A stretch of DNA of 64,000 nucleotides from Listeria grayi DSM 20601. GTDB taxonomy: Bacteria > Bacillota > Bacilli > Lactobacillales > Listeriaceae. The notes under the pieces were generated by a model. That model was not told the DNA's origin and ran no database searches. It saw nothing but the letters and a program-made list of their open reading frames with translations. Every line of letters starts with the position of its first letter. Within the stretch, counting starts at the first letter, position 1. The translations under genes were made by a program, and so were the position numbers. Location: contig NZ_GL538352.1 of NCBI RefSeq assembly GCF_000148995.1, forward strand, positions 186,001 through 250,000, written 5' to 3'. Of the stretch, positions 44,515 through 53,465 are shown in pieces.

Positions 44515-45168
44515 ATGAGCGAATGGCAACAAAAATGGCAAGCATGGCGCGATATGACTGTGGCAATGCAGACCGAGATCAAAACCGAAGCAGCAGAAAA
44601 AGTGAAAAGTCATTTACTAGCCTCAGAATTTGAACAAGCGATCCAAGTCATCCACGAAACCGAAGCCTTAGTAGCAGAACTTGATCTAACAGAAAAATGG
44701 GCACACTTAGAACGAAAACTCGCTGATTTCTCCAGCACGATGAAGGCAGAAAGCAAACCCTTCCAAGCCGGACAATTAAGCCAAATCGAAGAACAGCGCA
44801 AAGAAGCACCAAAAGGATTTGCAGCAGAAACCGTAAAAGAAGAAGCAAAACAACTGCTAGCAGCCCGCGATTTCAGCTTTGTCGGCGAAACAGACACCTA
44901 CATCCATTTCGTCAAAGCCAGCCGAAACTACTACTTGAACCTCTTCCACCCCGCCAAAGAAAAAGACGAACTGCGACAAGAATTAGAAGCAATGCGCCAA
45001 TATAAAAATATCGGTTGGATCTGCCGCAACCAGAACGAATCCGCCGAAGCAAAGAAAATCATCGACGAATGGTTGGAAGAATTAGAACCAGCCAAGAAAA
45101 AATTCCTAACAATGAATCTAGCGGTCATGACGGAGATGAAAGCAAATCCGGCTATGACGTTTCAGTGA
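44515..45168 (+). CDS. Uncharacterised last gene of the flagellar operon
   Basis: The 217-residue, charged, mostly helical protein is rich in Glu, Lys and Ala, with no membrane helix or signal peptide. It sits three bases after the transglycosylase, in the position of lmo0718. No domain is recognisable. Sequence just after the stop changes character: it is AT-richer and full of stops, marking the left edge of the accessory island. Confidence 0.72.
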   Translation: MSEWQQKWQAWRDMTVAMQTEIKTEAAEKVKSHLLASEFEQAIQVIHETEALVAELDLTEKWAHLERKLADFSSTMKAESKPFQAGQLSQIEEQRKEAPKGFAAETVKEEAKQLLAARDFSFVGETDTYIHFVKASRNYYLNLFHPAKEKDELRQELEAMRQYKNIGWICRNQNESAEAKKIIDEWLEELEPAKKKFLTMNLAVMTEMKANPAMTFQ

Positions 45169-45265
45169 ATGAACAGTTAGCAGAAGCAGAAAAAAGCTTG
45201 AAGCATTTGATTGAGTTTGATTTTTATGACTAGGATTGGGTAAACGAGCTTAAACTAGAGAATTA

Positions 45266-45414
45266 AACGACAATCACACGTATTTAGGGTATTATTGTTT
45301 AGAGAAAGGTCCGCCTACCAAATAAAGGCAAATGAAAAAAGCTATATATTGCAAGGGCCCTCATATAACCGAGAAATCAAAGACTACTTTGATTTGCTAG
45401 GAGGAAATAAATAG
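45266..45414 (+). pseudogene. Remnant of an unidentified protein, frame-shifted
   Basis: Two frames each hold a protein-like piece. One reads NDNHTYLGYYCLEKGPPTK (from 45266) and stops. The other continues in a shifted frame with KANEKSYILQGPSYNREIKD and on to a stop at 45412-45414. Joined, they resemble the C-terminal part of a small soluble protein broken by a frameshift. I cannot name the family; a former immunity or accessory gene of the neighbouring toxin island is plausible. Confidence 0.35.
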
Positions 45415-45416
45415 AA

Positions 45417-45551
45417 ATGAAGCTTATCAAGTATAAATCATTATTACTTTTTTTATTTGTTTTTTATTTTTGTATGGGAGCTTCTAAGTTTGCACAAGTT
45501 TTATGGTTTGATAAAACTGGAAACCTTGTAAACTATTCACTTTCCTATTAA
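45417..45551 (+). CDS. 44-residue membrane peptide
   Basis: The ATG at 45417 follows GGAGG at 45400-45404. The product has a basic N-terminus (MKLIKYKS), one strongly hydrophobic segment (about 9-23, LLLFLFVFYFCMGAS) and a short polar tail. It could be a small membrane protein of the island or the start of a truncated larger gene. Just after it (45572-45664) lies another short hydrophobic frame broken by a shift. No family is recognised. Confidence 0.4.
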   Translation: MKLIKYKSLLLFLFVFYFCMGASKFAQVLWFDKTGNLVNYSLSY

Positions 45552-45797
45552 AGGAAATCGTGGAATATGAAATGCTAACAAAAAAAATTTAGCTATATAT
45601 AGGATTGCTGCAATCTGCGTTTTTATTTAGCGTCTTTGGCATAGCAAGCTGTCTAGGGGGATAATATATGTTTGGATGAGCAGAAAGTTAGAGAGAAGTA
45701 GACTTAACTTATAGATCTTAATCGAACTTAAAGGGTATAGTTTGTTAACTCTAGCAGTTTCATTTAGTAAGATAGAAAATAAAATTATAAAAAACAC

Positions 45798-45832
45798 TAA
45801 AAGCCTAGAAAGTATAATTTCTAGGCTTTTTT
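45798..45832 (+). terminator. Terminator before the WXG100 gene
   Basis: A 13-bp stem (AAAAGCCTAGAAA and its complement), 6-base loop and a run of T at 45827-45832. It insulates the toxin module from upstream transcription. Confidence 0.88.
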
Positions 45833-45882
45833 ATCTAATTATGGCAACTCTCTCGTTTTTTGTCACAGAAAGTTCAGAAAAC

Positions 45883-45958: not shown

Positions 45959-46255
45959 ATGGCAGGACAAATCAGAATGAGCCCGGCAGAATTACGGGAC
46001 CGCGCCAAGAAATACGGGACGAGCGCACGAGAAATCGATCAGATCTTGAATAACTTGAAAAATCTACAAGAACAATTACGAGGAGAATGGGAAGGGCAAG
46101 CCTTCGCACGTTTTGATGAGCAATTCAACCAACTAAAACCCAAAGTCGTCCAATTCTCCGATCTACTCGACCAGATCCAAGGCCAATTAGAGAAAACAGC
46201 GACTTCTGTGGAGAACCATGACCGCGAGTTATCGCAGAATTTTGGTCTCAATTAA
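45959..46255 (+). CDS. WXG100-family type VII secretion protein (EsxA-like)
   Basis: The 98-residue two-helix protein has WEG at residues 44-46 between the helices (LRGEWEGQAFARFDEQF) and the YukE/EsxA-type N-terminus (MAGQIRMSPAELRDRAKKYG). Such proteins are secreted as helical-hairpin dimers by ESX/Yuk systems. It is an orphan here: no yukD, essC or other machinery is nearby. It has AAAGGAG eight bases before the ATG; a preceding ATG is out of frame. It may guide or accompany the LXG toxin encoded just downstream. Confidence 0.9.
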   Translation: MAGQIRMSPAELRDRAKKYGTSAREIDQILNNLKNLQEQLRGEWEGQAFARFDEQFNQLKPKVVQFSDLLDQIQGQLEKTATSVENHDRELSQNFGLN

Positions 46256-46323
46256 GGTTTCCAAAACTGGAAAAGTCATGCACGAAGGTGTATGGCTTTT
46301 TCTACATCAAGGAGGGATCGTAA

Positions 46324-46611
46324 ATGGCAGATGGAATCGTAAGCAATCTGGGCATTGCTCAGGGACACGCGACAAGCCTACAAAACGCACTGACCGCGTT
46401 ATCTGGAAACTGGACACCAGATACGGATAAAAAAACGACCTTGCAAGGAAACACGAAGCTGCAAACGGTCAGCACGCAGGAACTAGCTGTACTAGCCTCC
46501 CTTCGTAGTGTCTTAGAACAAGATATTGCGAATATCCACAGTGTGGCAACAGATTTCGAGGCACTCGATCAACAACTACAACAAAACTTTACATTGCCAT
46601 CATTACCATAG
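46324..46611 (+). CDS. Small LXG-toxin partner (TIGR04197/DUF3130-like)
   Basis: The 95-residue helical protein (MADGIVSNLGIAQGHATSLQ at the start, ELAVLASLRSVLEQDIANIH later) resembles the SACOL2603/TIGR04197 group, related to DUF3130 LapD1-type proteins. These bind the LXG domain together with a second partner and carry the toxin to the type VII machinery. AAGGAGGG precedes the ATG. It stands between the WXG100 gene and the second partner. Confidence 0.78.
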   Translation: MADGIVSNLGIAQGHATSLQNALTALSGNWTPDTDKKTTLQGNTKLQTVSTQELAVLASLRSVLEQDIANIHSVATDFEALDQQLQQNFTLPSLP

Positions 46612-46626
46612 GAAGGAATGGGGACA

Positions 46627-46980
46627 TTGGAAACAGCTACAGCGGAAGAATTAACGCAACGACTATACCGGATAGGCGAAGAAAAACAGGAAGTAGAAGG
46701 GCAACAACGGGAGCTACGTCGGTTGGAAGAAGAATTCCAAACCCATCTTCAACAAAAAAACCGGCTTTTGGATGAAATAAGCCATACGTGGCAAAAAGGA
46801 CAGATGGCGCACCGGACAACAGACCGAATGTTACAAATACGAAAAGAAGAACAAGGGTTGATGGAACGATTTTGGGAAGAAAGGGAAACGACCAAAAAAG
46901 CGCACCAACAATTGGAAGCGAAAGAAGAAGCCGTCTACTATCAGCGAAAAGCAGCTTATGAGAAGGAGGCAACATCATGA
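46627..46980 (+). CDS. Small coiled-coil LXG-toxin partner (DUF3958-like)
   Basis: This roughly 117-residue, highly charged helical hairpin protein (RLYRIGEEKQEVEGQQRELR, EEFQTHLQQKNRLLDEISHT) fits the DUF3958/LapD2 type that heterodimerises with the preceding protein and the LXG domain. An ATG at 46618 lies one base after GGAAGG and is badly spaced; the TTG at 46627 is ten bases from that site and preferred. The gene overlaps the toxin start by four bases. Confidence 0.72.
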   Translation: METATAEELTQRLYRIGEEKQEVEGQQRELRRLEEEFQTHLQQKNRLLDEISHTWQKGQMAHRTTDRMLQIRKEEQGLMERFWEERETTKKAHQQLEAKEEAVYYQRKAAYEKEATS

Positions 46981-48461
46981 GTGTCGATATGTTTCTAGAC
47001 GACGCAGACAGTCAAGTCACCGCGATCAGGAATATGTGCCAAGCTCATGTTCAAGGACTAAACAGCTTGAAAACGGCTATCTCCCAGTTTATTTTCGAGC
47101 CGGTATTAATAGGGAAAACCTATGATTCCGCCAAGATCTATTTTCAAATGACGTATATCCCTGTCATCACTGGTCTGATTTTAGTGGCAGAAACCTTAGA
47201 GACGGCAGCAAAGAAACTTCCGGATCGCTATCGATCGGATGTGGATGACAATTCCCTTCAAGAAGCTGTTTTACGCCGACATATCGAGCAGCTGAATAAG
47301 CTCATGGCTTTCGCGGACCACTTAGCAGCAGGCGCATCAAAAAACAGTTTTTTGAAAACCGGATTGACAAAATTAGGGGAACATTACCAAGGTCAACAGA
47401 AGGATGAACAAGCAAAGTTGGCAAAACTGATGGCATTTGATCCCGTATCCGCAACGCTTTTTGGTGAAGTAGAAACATTACTGGATGCGGTGGAACAAGG
47501 GCTAAAAGAGATGCGTAGTGGAAAGGGTTTTAGCGGACTAACAGGGACCTTCAGCACGATGGGATTGAATATGGATTGGGTGAAACCGATCAATGATAAA
47601 TGGACGGAATACGATCGCAGGCAAAAAGGGATCGATTCTAAGAAAGAGAAAGAGTTAGAAGCTTATGATGTTTATGCCATTGTTTATGAAGATACGGATG
47701 GAAATGCGAAAATCTTATGGCATTTAGAAAAAGACGGAAAAGGCGTAGACGCCCCGGAATTATATCAGTATTTAAGTAAGGCCGGCCAATATTTACCGGA
47801 TCAGCAATACCGGATATGGTCGATGGAAGATTATCAGAAACATTTAGAAGATGGTTGGCGCCATGGGATCAATTATCAAAATGGGGATGCATATAACGCG
47901 TTTATCAAAGGCACACTCGCAACCTCTCAGTATGTAGCGGATGGTTATAATTGGGTACAAGAGACCGGCATGTACGATTTGATTTTGATGGCTGGGTTGA
48001 GTTATGCTTCTTATAAGGTGACGACGGAGACGGGGGTTCCAGAGAAAGTTAGTGGGGCTAAGGCTCCAAAGACAGATTTTGGTGCAGAAAATCCTGTATC
48101 AGGAAAAGATTGGAACAATTATTTTAAAGAAAAATATGGTGCTGGTAATGTTCAGTGGAAACCTAACTCTATTGAAGACATTATCTCCAGTCCTAAAAGA
48201 CTGTATGGAAGTACCAAAAATGAAATAAAATCAATATTAGGTGAAGGTTGGACAGAGTCCACATATGGGTCAGCAGGGAATGGTTGGAAATTTACTAATG
48301 ACGGAGATGGAATGGTGTTTTATCATCCAGGAGACGGTATACATGGAGGTCCCTATTATGGATTTTCTACAGGTGATACAGGTAAAGTGAAAATTGTTGG
48401 GGAAGATTATATAGACTTTTCGAATGATAAAGCAACAATTATAAAGTTGGGTGGTGAATAA
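46977..48461 (+). CDS. LXG-domain polymorphic toxin, type VII secretion effector
   Basis: The 494-residue protein has an N-terminal LXG domain (about 1-200) starting MSVDMFLDDADSQVTAIRNM, with the L-x-G motif at 44-46. A middle region (about 200-375) follows. The C-terminal toxin domain begins after the linker PVSGKDWNNYFKEKYGAGNV (about residue 378) and holds KSILGEGWTESTYGS, GNGWKFTND and YHPGDGIHGGPYYGFSTG with two conspicuous His residues. I cannot assign that domain; its Gly/His-rich beta pattern is reminiscent of small RNase folds (BECR type), which is inference. The 3' third is more AT-rich than the 5' part, as in toxins whose C-terminus is exchanged. The start overlaps the preceding stop. 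Confidence 0.85.
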   Translation: MSVDMFLDDADSQVTAIRNMCQAHVQGLNSLKTAISQFIFEPVLIGKTYDSAKIYFQMTYIPVITGLILVAETLETAAKKLPDRYRSDVDDNSLQEAVLRRHIEQLNKLMAFADHLAAGASKNSFLKTGLTKLGEHYQGQQKDEQAKLAKLMAFDPVSATLFGEVETLLDAVEQGLKEMRSGKGFSGLTGTFSTMGLNMDWVKPINDKWTEYDRRQKGIDSKKEKELEAYDVYAIVYEDTDGNAKILWHLEKDGKGVDAPELYQYLSKAGQYLPDQQYRIWSMEDYQKHLEDGWRHGINYQNGDAYNAFIKGTLATSQYVADGYNWVQETGMYDLILMAGLSYASYKVTTETGVPEKVSGAKAPKTDFGAENPVSGKDWNNYFKEKYGAGNVQWKPNSIEDIISSPKRLYGSTKNEIKSILGEGWTESTYGSAGNGWKFTNDGDGMVFYHPGDGIHGGPYYGFSTGDTGKVKIVGEDYIDFSNDKATIIKLGGE

Positions 48462-48464
48462 CAT

Positions 48465-48845
48465 TTGGAAAAATTAACTTTAGGCGGAAAATTTGATTGG
48501 TTCATGGATACTCTTGAGAAAAGTGGTATGTTTATTTTGAAATTATCTAATGAAGAAATAGAGACATTTATTTTTGAAGATTTAATAGTAGGCGTTACCT
48601 CTTTTTTCAGTAAAAATAATTTAATCGAATTGAAAGAGAATGGATTAATTGATGAAAATATTGAAGAACAAGCTGCTCTTTTTAGAGAAAAAGTGCTAAA
48701 TCTTGATAATACGAGTTTATGGAATATTAGTAGTGTAAGGCAAAGTTCCGAATGGTTAGATGTTTTCAAATTATCTGATGATATGAAAAATGAACTTCAT
48801 GAAAGATGGTCTGATGAAGAAATAGAATACTTGAAAACAATATAA
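48465..48845 (+). CDS. Probable immunity protein of the LXG toxin
   Basis: The 126-residue acidic cytoplasmic protein is encoded three bases after the toxin, with a TTG start after GGGTGGTGAATAACA. It has no signal peptide or membrane helix, so it should act inside the cell, consistent with a cytoplasmic target such as nucleic acid. The sequence (GGKFDWFMDTLEKSGMFILK at the start, ending EEIEYLKTI) matches no immunity family I know. Its low GC content equals that of the toxin C-terminus, suggesting the two moved together. Confidence 0.7.
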   Translation: MEKLTLGGKFDWFMDTLEKSGMFILKLSNEEIETFIFEDLIVGVTSFFSKNNLIELKENGLIDENIEEQAALFREKVLNLDNTSLWNISSVRQSSEWLDVFKLSDDMKNELHERWSDEEIEYLKTI

Positions 48846-49130: not shown

Positions 49131-49498
49131 GATGAGTTTTTTCTGTTTGGAACTGGTGATTTCTTTCATTCTTTTTCTCAACAATATGTGTAAACCTAGA
49201 AAACATAAATTGGGGGAGTGAATTTCCTATCGTGATGAAAGATATGTACGCAAGATATTTATCAAAAGAAAAAATTGAAATTGCTAAACATGAGTTACAA
49301 AAAATTAAAATAGGTTGAGTGAAATTCCCCCCAAAAGAAATTATTTGGGATGTAGAGGATTTAGAGAAAAATCCACCTTGTGGCACACATATAAGTAAAG
49401 ATATTACTAGTTTAGCCCAATATTTTGTAATAGCTGATGGAAAGAATCTAATAAGTGTTTTAGAAGAAGACGTAGATATAGAAATAAAAGTTTTATAG
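49131..49498 (+). pseudogene. Broken Imm70-like immunity gene
   Basis: Conceptual translation gives FLFGTGDFFHSF, then after a shift of frame STICVNLENINWGSEFPIVM and on. An in-frame TGA at 49317 interrupts the frame. It continues with KEIIWDVEDLEKNPPCGTHI and SKDITSLAQYFVIADGKNL to a stop at 49496-49498. The IWDVEDLEKNPP...ITSL..YFV..DGK pattern is that of Imm70-type immunity proteins. With at least one frameshift and one nonsense codon it is probably dead. Its own toxin is absent, so it is an orphan remnant of a past toxin cassette. Confidence 0.65.
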
Positions 49499-49544: not shown

Positions 49545-49581
49545 AAAACAAGCTGGACTAATTACTTTTCCAGCTTGTTTT
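49545..49581 (+). terminator. Terminator after the broken immunity gene
   Basis: A perfect 13-bp stem (AAAACAAGCTGGA at 49545, complement ending at 49581) with a T-rich end; it can act on both strands. Confidence 0.8.
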
Positions 49582-49678
49582 ATTGTATATCAGTTGCTCT
49601 TCCATATGAAGAGCGTTCTAAAATCAAATTTCGTTCAAATTCGGCGAAAGCAGCGAACAAATAAAAGAGATATTTCTC
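49580..49678 (-). pseudogene. Serine-recombinase (resolvase) remnant
   Basis: The minus-strand frame encodes YLFYLFAAFAEFERNLILER followed by SSYGRATDIQ and a stop. AFAEFER-x-LI-x-ER is the hallmark of the long helix after the catalytic domain in resolvase/invertase serine recombinases. Both the catalytic N-terminus (Ser region) and the DNA-binding C-terminus are missing; upstream in-frame codons are unrelated. It marks past mobile-element activity at this spot. Confidence 0.65.
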
Positions 49679-49787
49679 AAATCGGAGAAAAAGTATAAGT
49701 TGTTTATTAGAAAGCCATAAATTTGACATAAAATAGAGATTTTTTTTAAGCAAATCCCTGAGGTTACTCGTTTTATTATAGGGATAG

Positions 49788-49796
49788 TGATATAAT
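49788..49796 (+). promoter_or_regulatory. Extended -10 promoter of the M60 peptidase gene
   Basis: TGATATAAT (49788-49796) is an extended -10 element with no good -35. Transcription would begin near 49803, leaving a very short leader containing GAAAGGGG. Confidence 0.5.
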
Positions 49797-49838
49797 TCAC
49801 TTGAATTTAGAGTGAAAGGGGAATGTATCATAGAAGCA

Positions 49839-52800
49839 ATGAAAGTACATATTCAGAACAAGACAATCATTTGGGGAGCAGTCAGTTTATTCGCTTTATT
49901 TATACTTTCGTGTATTTGTTTTCAAAGCAGCGTTTCCGCAGCAGAGGAAAGTAGAGATGGCGTGCGCAATGAGAGTCTGCAAATGAAAGTAATCCCTAGA
50001 GGAAATCCGGCGACTAGTAGGGCAAGAGAACAGAGAGGGAACGAACATACATCATTTGAGTCGACCGGTTTATTTTTATATAAGGGAGATGAGATCACCG
50101 TTGAAGTAGAAGGTGAACCGGAAAATTTGGAATTGCGGGTAGGACAATGGGGTGGTTATACGAATACTCCTTATATCGCTACTGGTTCGCAAAGTTATGC
50201 TTTTAAAGAGGGCGTGGTAAAACTTCACGGAGGAACGAATACCTTTACGAGAAACTTTTCAGGAGGAATGGTTTATCTCGTCAATTATTCCACTACGAAA
50301 GCAGAAAATGTTGCGATTAAAGGTGGCGTAAAAGTTCCTTATTACGTTCAAGGAAAGACTTCGATTGATTCCTTTAAAAATGAATTGGAACAGTATAAAG
50401 ATGTCCCATTTATGGAGTTTGTAAATAATGATGCAATCGCAACCATTCGAATAGATCGAGCAAAAGATATTTTTGAAAAAGGCAATCAAGTGGATGTATT
50501 TATGTCTTCGTTAGCTAAAATCGTTAAACTTCAAAACGGGGCTGCCGGTCTTTCTTATGATGGACAGGGTGCAGAAAGAAAAGATCTGCAACGCATTCAT
50601 GTCATGAATCCGGAATGGGGAGCAGGACAACTGTTTGCAACGAATAACTTTATTGGCATTCATAGTGCAACGACTAAAGACCGGGAGATTTTCAGCAAAG
50701 GACTTGATAGTACAGATTGGGGAATGCTTCATGAATCTGGGCATACCTATCAAAATAAAATGTATCAATGGCGTAATATGACAGAAGTAACGGTTAATAT
50801 TTATGCTGACTATGCGCAAAAAATGTGGTCTGCAGATGGAACAGGGAGATACGATGCAGTAAATGTGAAGAACGGAAGCAGAGCAAGTGTACAAAAGTAT
50901 TTTAAGAAATTAGAAACAGATCCGACATGGAATTTTGATCGTGAGTCCACGGAGACAAACGACTATCATTTTGCTTTACTAGGCATGTTTTTAACATTAC
51001 CAAGAACATTCGGTTATGATTTTTATCCTGTATTGAATCAATCTTATCGCTCCTTACCGGAGGAAGAGCTACCGAAAACAGAGGAAGAGCAGAAGCAACT
51101 ATTTATTCTGATGACAAGTAAAGTGGCACATCGTGATTTAACGCCGTTCTTTGAACATTGGCGTTTCACAATAACAGATGAAACAAAAGAGAAGTTGAAA
51201 GCATTAAAACTTCCAACGTTGGAGAAAGAGATTTGGAAAGATGTACTAGCAACCGAACAAGAAGAAAAAGCTGGGACATATCGTATTTCAAAGGCAGTTG
51301 GGCCATACTCTGTTCCACAAGTTGAATGGAAATCAGGTATCCCGCAATTTCCTTTTGAGAATTTAAGAAATGCTTTGAATGCCAACGATTTAGTTGCAAA
51401 TATGTATTCAACACCAATTGCATCAAATACAAGTTTAGTAACCACTGGAACAGTCTCGGACGGAACGAGCTTTGATATTCAGAACGCGTATGCATACTTT
51501 ACGAATGATTTGGGAATCCCGAATAAAATCCCTTTCTCCGTAAAAGTCACGCCGGGAGACAGTATCGTCATGACGGGACAGCGTGGTCGCTACGCAGTTT
51601 TAAGTTACGATCCGAAAGCGAAAACGCTCCTGGCACGTGGGAATTCCAAGAAAATATTGGAGAATCTGCCAAATAATCTTTATCCACGAGTAAAAGTTTA
51701 TGATAAAAATATGCAGACAGTCAAAAAAGTAGCAGAAGGTTACGGAAAAACGTATGGCTATGAATTTGCGGGCAAATTAGACAATGTGCCTGTTAATATT
51801 GGAGACATCGTTGAAATTTATCACCGTGAGTCAGCTAAACGGGTACAGCGTTATAAAGACAACAAACCTTTGACAACAAATAAAGATACTTACTATTATC
51901 AAATCACTAAGACCGGCTGGCAAGAAATTGATTTTAATCCGAAAAGTATCGAAGGCTCTGCGATTGCTGCCAAAGTCGGTGACAGCGGCGAAATGGATTT
52001 ACAAATAAATCCGGCAAACAGTATTTTACCAAGTGACTATGAATATACTGTTTCGGATCCTTCTATTATCAAGGTTGACAGCAAAGGCAAGTGGCAAGCA
52101 CTTAAAAAAGGTAAAACAACTATTGCCGTCACGGCAAAACTTCCTGATGTAGGGGAATTAGCTGGGGCAGATTATCCGGCCGAATTGAAAACAACTATTG
52201 AAGTAGAAATCACTAATAGCGGCGCCCCGATTAAAATCCACTATGTTGATTTACAAGGAAATCCGCTGACAGATGTATCAGAACAAGTGATTGCCGGTGA
52301 TGCTGGTGACGTTATTAATTTAGAGCAGTATGCGATAAAAGTTCCAGGCTACACACTACTTACTGAAACAGCAAATAAAACAGCGATAGTTTCTACTAAA
52401 GAACAAGATATTTCATTTATTTACGGTGGGAACATTATCAGCGTTACAGGTGATAACATCGGAACCACAGTCGGAAAGACCGGGAAAATACAAATCAAAT
52501 TGGTTCCTGAAATAACAGAAATGCCCGCAGAAAAGCTTATAAAAGCAAAAAAGATCACTTATAATGTAGCTGATCCAAGTATTATTCAATTAGAGACGGA
52601 TGGCGAGTGGAAAGCACTTAAAAACGGCTCAACGACCATTACCGCTTTAGTAACACTGGAAAGCGGTAAGCAGCTAGAACTGACTAAGCCACTTGAAGTA
52701 ATGGTTGGTTATAATGCAGAACCAATTCACATCAGGTATCAAACGACAGCTGGAAAGCACTTAGACGAAGAAACGATCTATGGAAATGTGGGAGAAAGCT

Positions 52801-53465
52801 ATCAAGCTGAGCCGAAGAGAATTAACGGCTACACAGCTGTCTCCGATAAAAATCAGATGTTGACTTTTACTGACAAAACGCAAGAAATCGTTTTCGAATA
52901 TGAGCCAAATCAGCTTAAAATCCAAGATGTCAGTGCCAAAGTTGGTGACAAGGGAAGATTCCAAATAACTGTTCTCCCTCAGAACAATAACGAAAAATAT
53001 ATATTTGAATATGTAGTAGAGAATTCGGACATCGTAAGTGTTACAAGTGATGGTAAATGGACGGCAAAGCAAACAGGAGAGACAACCATTGAAGTCCACG
53101 CGATTTCTGACGATTTAATAAGAAAAGCAGGCGTAGAACCAATGCTTTCCACTAAAATAACCTTTAAAGTAGCGCAAGAACCATCCAAAGAGAATGGAGA
53201 TAAGCAAACAACACCCGACGAAAAAGATGTAATTAATAATAAGAAAAATCCCAAAGAAGATTTGAGTGTTATCGAAAAACCAATAATTAAAAAGCAAAGT
53301 CGAACCATAGAAGACCCTAAGCAGTCGAAGAAAATGGTTGTCAAAGATAAAAAGCTACCTCATACAGGAGATAGTAATCAAAAAAATGTAGTGCCGCAAT
53401 TTATAGGTCTACTACTATGCTTGCAAGGTCTATATATTTGGAAAAGACGAAAAGTGGATAGCTAG
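49839..53465 (+). CDS. Cell-wall-anchored M60 (enhancin/mucinase-like) metallopeptidase
   Basis: The 1208-residue surface protein has a signal peptide (about 1-36, ending SVSAAEE) and an M60-type zinc peptidase domain (about 65-480) with HESGH at 298-302 and a candidate third ligand Glu316. Ig-like modules alternate with MucBP-like modules (IKIHYVDLQGNPLTD; IHIRYQTTAGKHLDEETI). The Lys/Pro-rich C-terminus ends in sorting signal LPHTG, a hydrophobic stretch and KRRK. M60 enzymes degrade mucins, so this may serve gut colonisation. The start is unclear: the ATG at 49839 is 18 bases from AAGGGG, and a GTG at 49812 lacks a site. Confidence 0.88.
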   Translation: MKVHIQNKTIIWGAVSLFALFILSCICFQSSVSAAEESRDGVRNESLQMKVIPRGNPATSRAREQRGNEHTSFESTGLFLYKGDEITVEVEGEPENLELRVGQWGGYTNTPYIATGSQSYAFKEGVVKLHGGTNTFTRNFSGGMVYLVNYSTTKAENVAIKGGVKVPYYVQGKTSIDSFKNELEQYKDVPFMEFVNNDAIATIRIDRAKDIFEKGNQVDVFMSSLAKIVKLQNGAAGLSYDGQGAERKDLQRIHVMNPEWGAGQLFATNNFIGIHSATTKDREIFSKGLDSTDWGMLHESGHTYQNKMYQWRNMTEVTVNIYADYAQKMWSADGTGRYDAVNVKNGSRASVQKYFKKLETDPTWNFDRESTETNDYHFALLGMFLTLPRTFGYDFYPVLNQSYRSLPEEELPKTEEEQKQLFILMTSKVAHRDLTPFFEHWRFTITDETKEKLKALKLPTLEKEIWKDVLATEQEEKAGTYRISKAVGPYSVPQVEWKSGIPQFPFENLRNALNANDLVANMYSTPIASNTSLVTTGTVSDGTSFDIQNAYAYFTNDLGIPNKIPFSVKVTPGDSIVMTGQRGRYAVLSYDPKAKTLLARGNSKKILENLPNNLYPRVKVYDKNMQTVKKVAEGYGKTYGYEFAGKLDNVPVNIGDIVEIYHRESAKRVQRYKDNKPLTTNKDTYYYQITKTGWQEIDFNPKSIEGSAIAAKVGDSGEMDLQINPANSILPSDYEYTVSDPSIIKVDSKGKWQALKKGKTTIAVTAKLPDVGELAGADYPAELKTTIEVEITNSGAPIKIHYVDLQGNPLTDVSEQVIAGDAGDVINLEQYAIKVPGYTLLTETANKTAIVSTKEQDISFIYGGNIISVTGDNIGTTVGKTGKIQIKLVPEITEMPAEKLIKAKKITYNVADPSIIQLETDGEWKALKNGSTTITALVTLESGKQLELTKPLEVMVGYNAEPIHIRYQTTAGKHLDEETIYGNVGESYQAEPKRINGYTAVSDKNQMLTFTDKTQEIVFEYEPNQLKIQDVSAKVGDKGRFQITVLPQNNNEKYIFEYVVENSDIVSVTSDGKWTAKQTGETTIEVHAISDDLIRKAGVEPMLSTKITFKVAQEPSKENGDKQTTPDEKDVINNKKNPKEDLSVIEKPIIKKQSRTIEDPKQSKKMVVKDKKLPHTGDSNQKNVVPQFIGLLLCLQGLYIWKRRKVDS

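What the first reader, a model, noticed from the sequence alone, without database searches (positions are those of the whole stretch)
45959..48845. Orphan type VII toxin module inserted beside the flagellar operon, with an unassigned toxin domain
WXG100, TIGR04197-like, DUF3958-like, LXG toxin and a likely immunity gene form a complete effector cassette with no secretion machinery. The C-terminal ~110 residues of the toxin (with KSILGEGW and YHPGDGIHGG) fit no family I can name with certainty. His residues and the Gly-rich beta pattern suggest a small ribonuclease, and the cytoplasmic immunity protein agrees.
Basis: partly seen in the sequence, partly recalled or inferred. Interest (0 to 1): 0.75.

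Follow-up and report, generated by a model that had tools for sequence, protein, structure and literature searches.

The report
Orphan type VII toxin-immunity cassette
A Listeria chromosome carries a self-contained weapon cassette (toxin, two escort proteins, an export-system protein and an antidote) whose killing tip belongs to a toxin family absent from the family libraries searched and shared with phage head proteins, probably an RNA-cutting enzyme.

Summary
45959-48845 encodes WXG100, DUF3130/TIGR04197 (Lap1, with an FxxxD motif), DUF3958 (Lap2), an LXG toxin and a small acidic immunity protein, just after fliF-fliG-fliH-fliI. 'No secretion machinery' is true only locally: the same chromosome carries a T7SSb about 0.96 Mb away, and the cassette's WXG100 is 94% identical to that system's EsxA. 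Dispersed LXG operons served in trans are known (PMC8321402). The toxin tip is unassigned: no credible Pfam, NCBIfam or PDB-sequence match for it and 12 relatives. It belongs to a wider family that also ends phage head or portal proteins (hhalign E 6e-9). In 395 genomes, all 15 window-type tips seen with their C-terminal end are followed by this immunity family. A confident model of the phage version (pTM 0.83) has no significant PDB match; its weak top hit is the rRNase CdiA-CT of Enterobacter cloacae, and the conserved motif falls near that toxin's active site. An RNase acting in the target cytoplasm is the best reading, unproven. Ordinary delivery cassette, unnamed toxin family.

The parts
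45959..46255 (+). WXG100 protein, paralogue of the core EsxA
   Evidence: PF06013 7.4e-24; 92 of 98 residues identical to EsxA of the T7SSb cluster; DNA 79.5% identical over 312 columns
46324..46611 (+). Lap1 (DUF3130/TIGR04197) targeting factor with FxxxD motif (FEALD, residue 78)
   Evidence: TIGR04197 1.6e-27; motif; role from PMC9600955
46618..46980 (+). Lap2 (DUF3958) targeting factor
   Evidence: PF13125 6.3e-13; role from PMC9600955
46977..48461 (+). LXG effector, 494 aa; LXG domain at residues 11-181
   Evidence: PF04740 6.1e-7
48108..48461 (+). C-terminal toxin region (residues 378-494): connector WNNYFKEKYG and toxin tip; core about 48180-48425
   Evidence: family alignments A1, A6, A7; model pTM 0.71
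48321..48359 (+). Conserved motif YHPGDGIHGGPYY with the candidate catalytic residues His450 and His456
48465..48845 (+). Cognate immunity protein, 126 aa, pI 4.4, TTG start
   Evidence: follows 15 of 15 window-type tips seen with their C-terminal end; no sister-type tip is paired
49235..49498 (+). Broken orphan immunity gene (Imm70 family), two pieces split by a stop
   Evidence: piece 49319-49498 matches PF15601 at 4.5e-17; piece 49235-49315 (27 aa) matches nothing
49580..49831 (-). Fragment resembling a serine recombinase (resolvase)
   Evidence: PF00239 0.0024, 18.4 bits, below the cut-off of 23.3

Best explanation
An antibacterial effector cassette of the T7SSb. Lap1 and Lap2 bind the LXG domain and present it to the T7SSb encoded 0.96 Mb away; the extra WXG100 is a diverged EsxA copy that may serve the same machine. 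The C-terminal tip then acts in a competitor's cytoplasm, most likely as a small endoribonuclease on translation RNA (rRNA or tRNA), with the two histidines of YHPxxxxH as catalytic residues. The acidic 126-aa protein from the next gene binds the tip and protects the producer. Shown here by computation: gene identities, presence of the machinery, the toxin family, its pairing with the immunity family. Inferred from published relatives: export through Lap1/Lap2 and antibacterial use. Inference only: RNase chemistry and target.
For: Gene families; FxxxD in Lap1; T7SSb cluster; WXG100 94% identical to EsxA; toxin-immunity pairing and the same pair at 7 of 7 window-type loci of genome contigs; tip and immunity gene of lower GC than the LXG part, 0.356 and 0.273 against 0.432, as for a swapped module; homologous tips on phage head and portal proteins; retained His pair; RNase toxin as top, though not significant, fold hit; motif match with Ntox21; LXG tRNase precedent YxiD (PMC12700104, passages).
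Against: No fold match at E 0.001; the window's tip is acidic (pI 5.1), while the phage rows range from pI 6.0 to 9.8; the Lys conserved in most relatives is Gly in the window type; L040 lacks the second His. Nothing here shows toxicity or secretion.
Confidence: 0.58

Rival explanations
1. Same cassette and delivery, but the tip is a cytoplasmic enzyme of another class (acting on nucleotides, NAD or proteins); the histidines bind metal or substrate.
For: No significant RNase fold match; acidic tip; a Listeria LXG toxin with similarity to an NADase is reported (PMC10327511, passage).
Against: Weak fold and motif similarities point to RNase toxins.
Confidence: 0.3
2. The cassette is a relic that is no longer exported or expressed; the broken Imm70 gene and the recombinase fragment mark a decaying island.
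For: Broken Imm70 gene and recombinase fragment downstream; low-GC stretches without clear genes on both sides.
Against: All five genes are open; EsxA and its copy stay 94% identical in protein at 79.5% in DNA, a sign of selection; machinery present.
Confidence: 0.1
3. The effector acts on eukaryotic hosts or predators, not on bacteria.
For: Some T7SSb effectors have reported host effects (PMC8675928, abstract start in a listing).
Against: A dedicated immunity gene follows the tip; related tips sit on phage proteins.
Confidence: 0.02

Closest known systems
LXG effector operons with Lap1 (DUF3130) and Lap2 (DUF3958), TelC and TelD of Streptococcus intermedius (PMC9600955, abstract and passages)
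   Same: Lap1, Lap2, LXG, immunity order and the FxxxD motif
   Different: Different toxin tip; an EsxA copy heads the window's cassette
Dispersed LXG operons of Bacillus subtilis (PMC8321402, passages)
   Same: LXG operons away from the T7SS cluster, delivered by the one T7SS
   Different: Most of those toxins are reported as DNases; one WXG100 (YukE) was thought to serve all six
YxiD of B. subtilis 6633, an LXG tRNase of BECR fold, Ntox50 (PMC12700104, passages)
   Same: LXG delivery, catalytic histidines, acidic immunity protein
   Different: The window's tip does not match any Pfam toxin model above E 10
CdiA-CT ECL / Ntox21, 16S rRNase, PDB 4ntq (PMC9086364, passages)
   Same: Weak top Foldseek hit of the phage relative; motif with His near the catalytic His
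   Different: Asp pair of the active site absent; Lys absent in the window type; no Ntox21 profile match
Toxin-tipped phage head proteins: MuF toxins (PMC5576092) and PBECR domains on MuF or portal proteins (PMC5512222), passages of both
   Same: Homologous tips end VG15-like head proteins and a portal-NUDIX protein, often followed by a small acidic gene
   Different: Phage delivery; the phage immunity family shows no similarity to the window's (hhalign E 0.15)

Membership tests
LXG polymorphic toxin operon of T7SSb (Lap type) | N-terminal LXG domain | tested here: met
   PF04740 6.1e-7, above cut-off
LXG polymorphic toxin operon of T7SSb (Lap type) | Adjacent Lap1 with FxxxD and Lap2 | tested here: met
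LXG polymorphic toxin operon of T7SSb (Lap type) | Variable C-terminal toxin with cognate immunity gene | tested here: met
   pairing by tip type
LXG polymorphic toxin operon of T7SSb (Lap type) | EssC-dependent export and toxicity relieved by immunity | not testable with these tools
   needs experiment; machinery genes are present
BECR-fold RNases (Barnase, EndoU, colicin E5/D, RelE) | BECR fold | tested here: inconclusive
   helices followed by antiparallel strands in both models; only weak hits, none at E 0.001
Ntox21 / colicin E3-like rRNases | Profile match to PF15526 | tested here: not met
   no match of the tip or 12 relatives at E up to 10; none in the window's genome while 3 of 295 genomes match
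Ntox21 / colicin E3-like rRNases | Asp-x-Asp-x-His and Lys active site (D203, D205, H207, K214 in CdiA-CT ECL) | tested here: not met
   His aligned; Asp positions are Gly and Lys is Gly in the window type
Ntox24 (Y, H, H toxins) | Profile match to PF15529 | tested here: not met
   no match of the tip or 12 relatives at E up to 10; 0 of 198 genomes, a weak test since nothing rang anywhere

The most novel reading that the evidence does not exclude
The tip founds an unnamed two-histidine toxin family, shared by T7SS LXG effectors and phage head or portal proteins (and perhaps Rhs proteins), built on a colicin E3/Ntox21-like scaffold whose Asp-Asp-His site has been replaced by a His-His site, and cutting ribosomal RNA or tRNA. 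Phage heads and type VII effectors would then draw on one pool of RNase tips with independent immunity families.
Probability: 0.25. Interest if true: 0.62.

Novelty: new variant of a known kind. Interest (0 to 1): 0.45.

Why it matters
LXG effectors are prominent antibacterial weapons of Gram-positive T7SSb and their tips are a source of new enzymes. This tip has no model in the Pfam, NCBIfam or PHROGs copies searched although it recurs in Listeria, Enterococcus, Vagococcus and in viral contigs. Naming it would annotate hypothetical C-termini, give some phage head proteins a testable effector function and add an immunity family. The EsxA copy beside the cassette makes it testable whether a cassette can bring its own WXG100 partner to a distant machine.

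Tried and rejected
Direct naming of the tip. Window and 12 relatives: Pfam best EVE 0.046 in 2 of 13, NCBIfam best 0.41 in 1 of 13, PDB sequences nothing up to E 10. Fourteen phage relatives: PHROGs best 0.062, Pfam best PepSY_2 0.0011 in 1 of 14 and SBDS_domain_II 0.05 in 3 of 14. Wider profiles against PDB: best 0.66 and 0.29. PADLOC: nothing. I take these as chance since the members do not agree. The immunity protein's PDB hit to a histidine-biosynthesis regulator (E 0.45) was rejected likewise. Foldseek against viral models, window tip: 0 of 308 listed at E 0.001.

The two records named Listeria phage are not used as phage evidence: both are unannotated, and the one opened is an unverified contig. 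A recent duplication of esxA is not supported (DNA 79.5%). Homology of the phage immunity family with the window's is not supported. No Ntox21 relative was found in viral contigs. The Ntox21 comparison was made after the Foldseek hit and with four profiles, of which one clearly exceeds its shuffles. Viral-contig scans with the window's tip alone and with its immunity protein found no relative, nor did a search of phage records with the L057 tip.

Print. Bowran and Palmer 2021 (recalled) is not held, so whether this tip is one of their lettered L. monocytogenes toxins is open. The listings show no title or abstract start that describes this tip; I opened seven of the listed papers for passages (searches cover eight papers in all) and read none in full.

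Full report
What is there. Positions 45959-48845 hold five open + strand genes: WXG100, TIGR04197/DUF3130, DUF3958, a 494-residue LXG protein and a 126-residue protein with a TTG start; scores are. DUF3130 and DUF3958 are the Lap1 and Lap2 targeting factors of LXG effectors (PMC9600955, abstract and passages), and this Lap1 keeps an FxxxD motif. The genes follow FliF, FliG, FliH, a FliI-type ATPase and a transglycosylase and one unassigned gene. The organism is a Listeria: same-genus genome G017 has the same toxin tip, in the stretch printed, as a named L. marthii record. L. grayi would fit the 2.6 Mb genome and 41.9% GC of the window, but that name is recalled and untested.

Orphan or not. 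Locally yes, in the genome no. EssB lies at C1:1196896; the region C1:1186000-1205900 carries EsxA, EsaA, EssA, a YukD/EsaB-like protein (below its model's cut-off), EssB and EssC in a row. The genome has three LXG genes at three places. The cassette's WXG100 is 92/98 identical to the core EsxA while the DNA is 79.5% identical: a copy diverged in DNA but held constant in protein. In B. subtilis six chromosomal LXG operons, three on phage-derived elements, are delivered by one T7SS (PMC8321402, passages), so the arrangement is ordinary.

Neighbourhood. Of 37 genomes searched, 16 have the gene that ends the flagellar cluster, the window's among them; in 15 of the 15 others no cassette protein and no M60 protein is found in the 1.5 kb beyond it. 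Downstream lie a broken Imm70 gene (later piece 4.5e-17) and a weak recombinase fragment, then an M60 peptidase-like surface protein. GC falls from 0.432 in the LXG part to 0.356 in the tip and 0.273 in the immunity gene, as for a swapped module.

The tip. No library searched names it. Six of eight genome-contig loci, in Enterococcus and Vagococcus, are 70-89% identical in the best segment over most of the tip; a Listeria seeligeri plasmid has it at 82% in an LXG gene behind a DUF3130 gene. In 395 genomes of the order, 21 have the family, in 33 places. Two types exist: the window's and a sister type with YHPGGGHHG or similar (L009, L038 and others). One Enterococcus locus (L006) has the connector and start of the tip behind Rhs-like sequence; that label is recalled from the look of the sequence, and its tip is frameshifted.

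Wider family. A profile of five sister-type and two phage rows (A5), without window-type rows, finds the window's tip in its own genome at E 0.00136; 2 of 398 genomes matched at 0.01, the other at 0.0063 with two stops. Scans of viral contigs with A5 and A8 gave 23 and 29 loci, many on the same contigs. Window-type and phage-type profiles match with hhalign probability 95.9%, E 6.3e-9. Of six phage carriers tested, VG15 passes its cut-off in two and is below it in two, one is a portal-NUDIX protein and one has no match. A small downstream gene was found at 15 of 25 distinct phage tips; at 10 none met the rule, at least one because its contig ends. Fourteen of the 15 were compared (L115, close to L118, left out): pI 4.1-5.4, and no similarity to the window's immunity protein.

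Immunity. Of 33 toxin places and 21 immunity places in the same 395 genomes, 17 and 17 are adjacent, 10-26 nt apart. The 17 are 15 window-type tips seen as sequence with their C-terminal end (14 full, one C-terminal half) and two pieces not seen as sequence (in G218 and G354). All window-type tips so seen are paired. Of the 16 unpaired toxin places, 10 are sister-type by sequence, two were not seen as sequence, and four are pieces lacking the C-terminal end. Four immunity places have no toxin beside them. In genome contigs the pair occurs at 7 of 7 window-type loci and not at the sister-type L009. The protein has pI 4.36 and no strongly hydrophobic stretch, so a cytoplasmic site is likely.

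Mechanism. The pattern [YF]H...H...Y[YW] is in 62 of 62 aligned rows, a descriptive number since rows repeat loci and some were found by that motif; L040 has lost the second His. AlphaFold2 gave pTM 0.71 for the window's tip with 10 rows and pTM 0.83, mean pLDDT 91.5, for a phage relative with 31 rows. Neither has a PDB match at E 0.001 (0 of 205 and 0 of 58 matches up to E 10). The phage model's first hit is CdiA-CT of Enterobacter cloacae (4ntq, E 0.98, probability 0.33, TM 0.39/0.46, rmsd 6.1), the second HP0892 (RelE-like by recall), HigB at ranks 26 and 46; the window model has HigB at 8, 9 and 23 and YoeB/ParE at 28. Many unrelated proteins stand between them. CdiA-CT ECL cuts 16S rRNA with D203, D205, H207 and K214 (PMC9086364, passages).

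Ntox21 comparison. Three Ntox21 relatives against four of my profiles: 31-row profile E 0.0012, score 22.2, above all of 200 column shuffles (maximum 16.8); 14-row phage profile E 0.02, 4 of 200 shuffles as good; window-type profile E 0.18, with a gapless match of FYHPGDGIHGGPYY to YISPDKDIHSGGYW; sister-type profile E 0.25 over 7 columns, Lys but not His in register. Only 7 to 14 columns match. I read it as a lead to a distant Ntox21/colicin E3-like scaffold with a changed active site, not as membership: the Asp pair is missing, and Lys is Gly in the window type.

Verdict. A standard T7SSb effector set whose toxin tip is a family that these libraries lack, with phage relatives. RNase is the most likely activity (about 0.6), another cytoplasmic enzyme the main rival. 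The delivery kind is known; the tip makes it a new variant.

Noticed in passing
49235-49498 (+) and 49580-49831 (-): Behind the cassette: an Imm70-family immunity gene broken by a stop, and a short serine-recombinase-like fragment on the other strand.
   Followed up: partly
45168-45850 (+): Low-GC stretch (0.31-0.35) between the flagellar-end gene and the cassette with short open pieces but no clear gene; two attempts to scan pieces failed on stops.
   Followed up: partly
49812-53465 (+): 1217-aa surface protein with M60 peptidase, mucin-binding and Big_2 domains; the LPXTG anchor model scores 17.1 bits, above its cut-off of 15.9.
   Followed up: no
L080:2342-4758 (G000:C1, about 1.477 Mb): A second orphan-looking LXG set in the same genome: small helical genes, an LXG protein 43% identical over the first 236 residues to the window's, another tip, another downstream gene.
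   Followed up: partly
L055:1766-4153: A phage portal protein fused to a NUDIX domain and to the toxin tip, followed by an 85-aa gene.
   Followed up: partly
L023:4226-6738 (plasmid pLIS51, NZ_MZ151536.1): A like set on a mobilizable Listeria seeligeri plasmid near recombinase, cadmium-resistance and Tn3 genes; the gene in the DUF3958 position is annotated 'ribonuclease P', probably a naming error.
   Followed up: no
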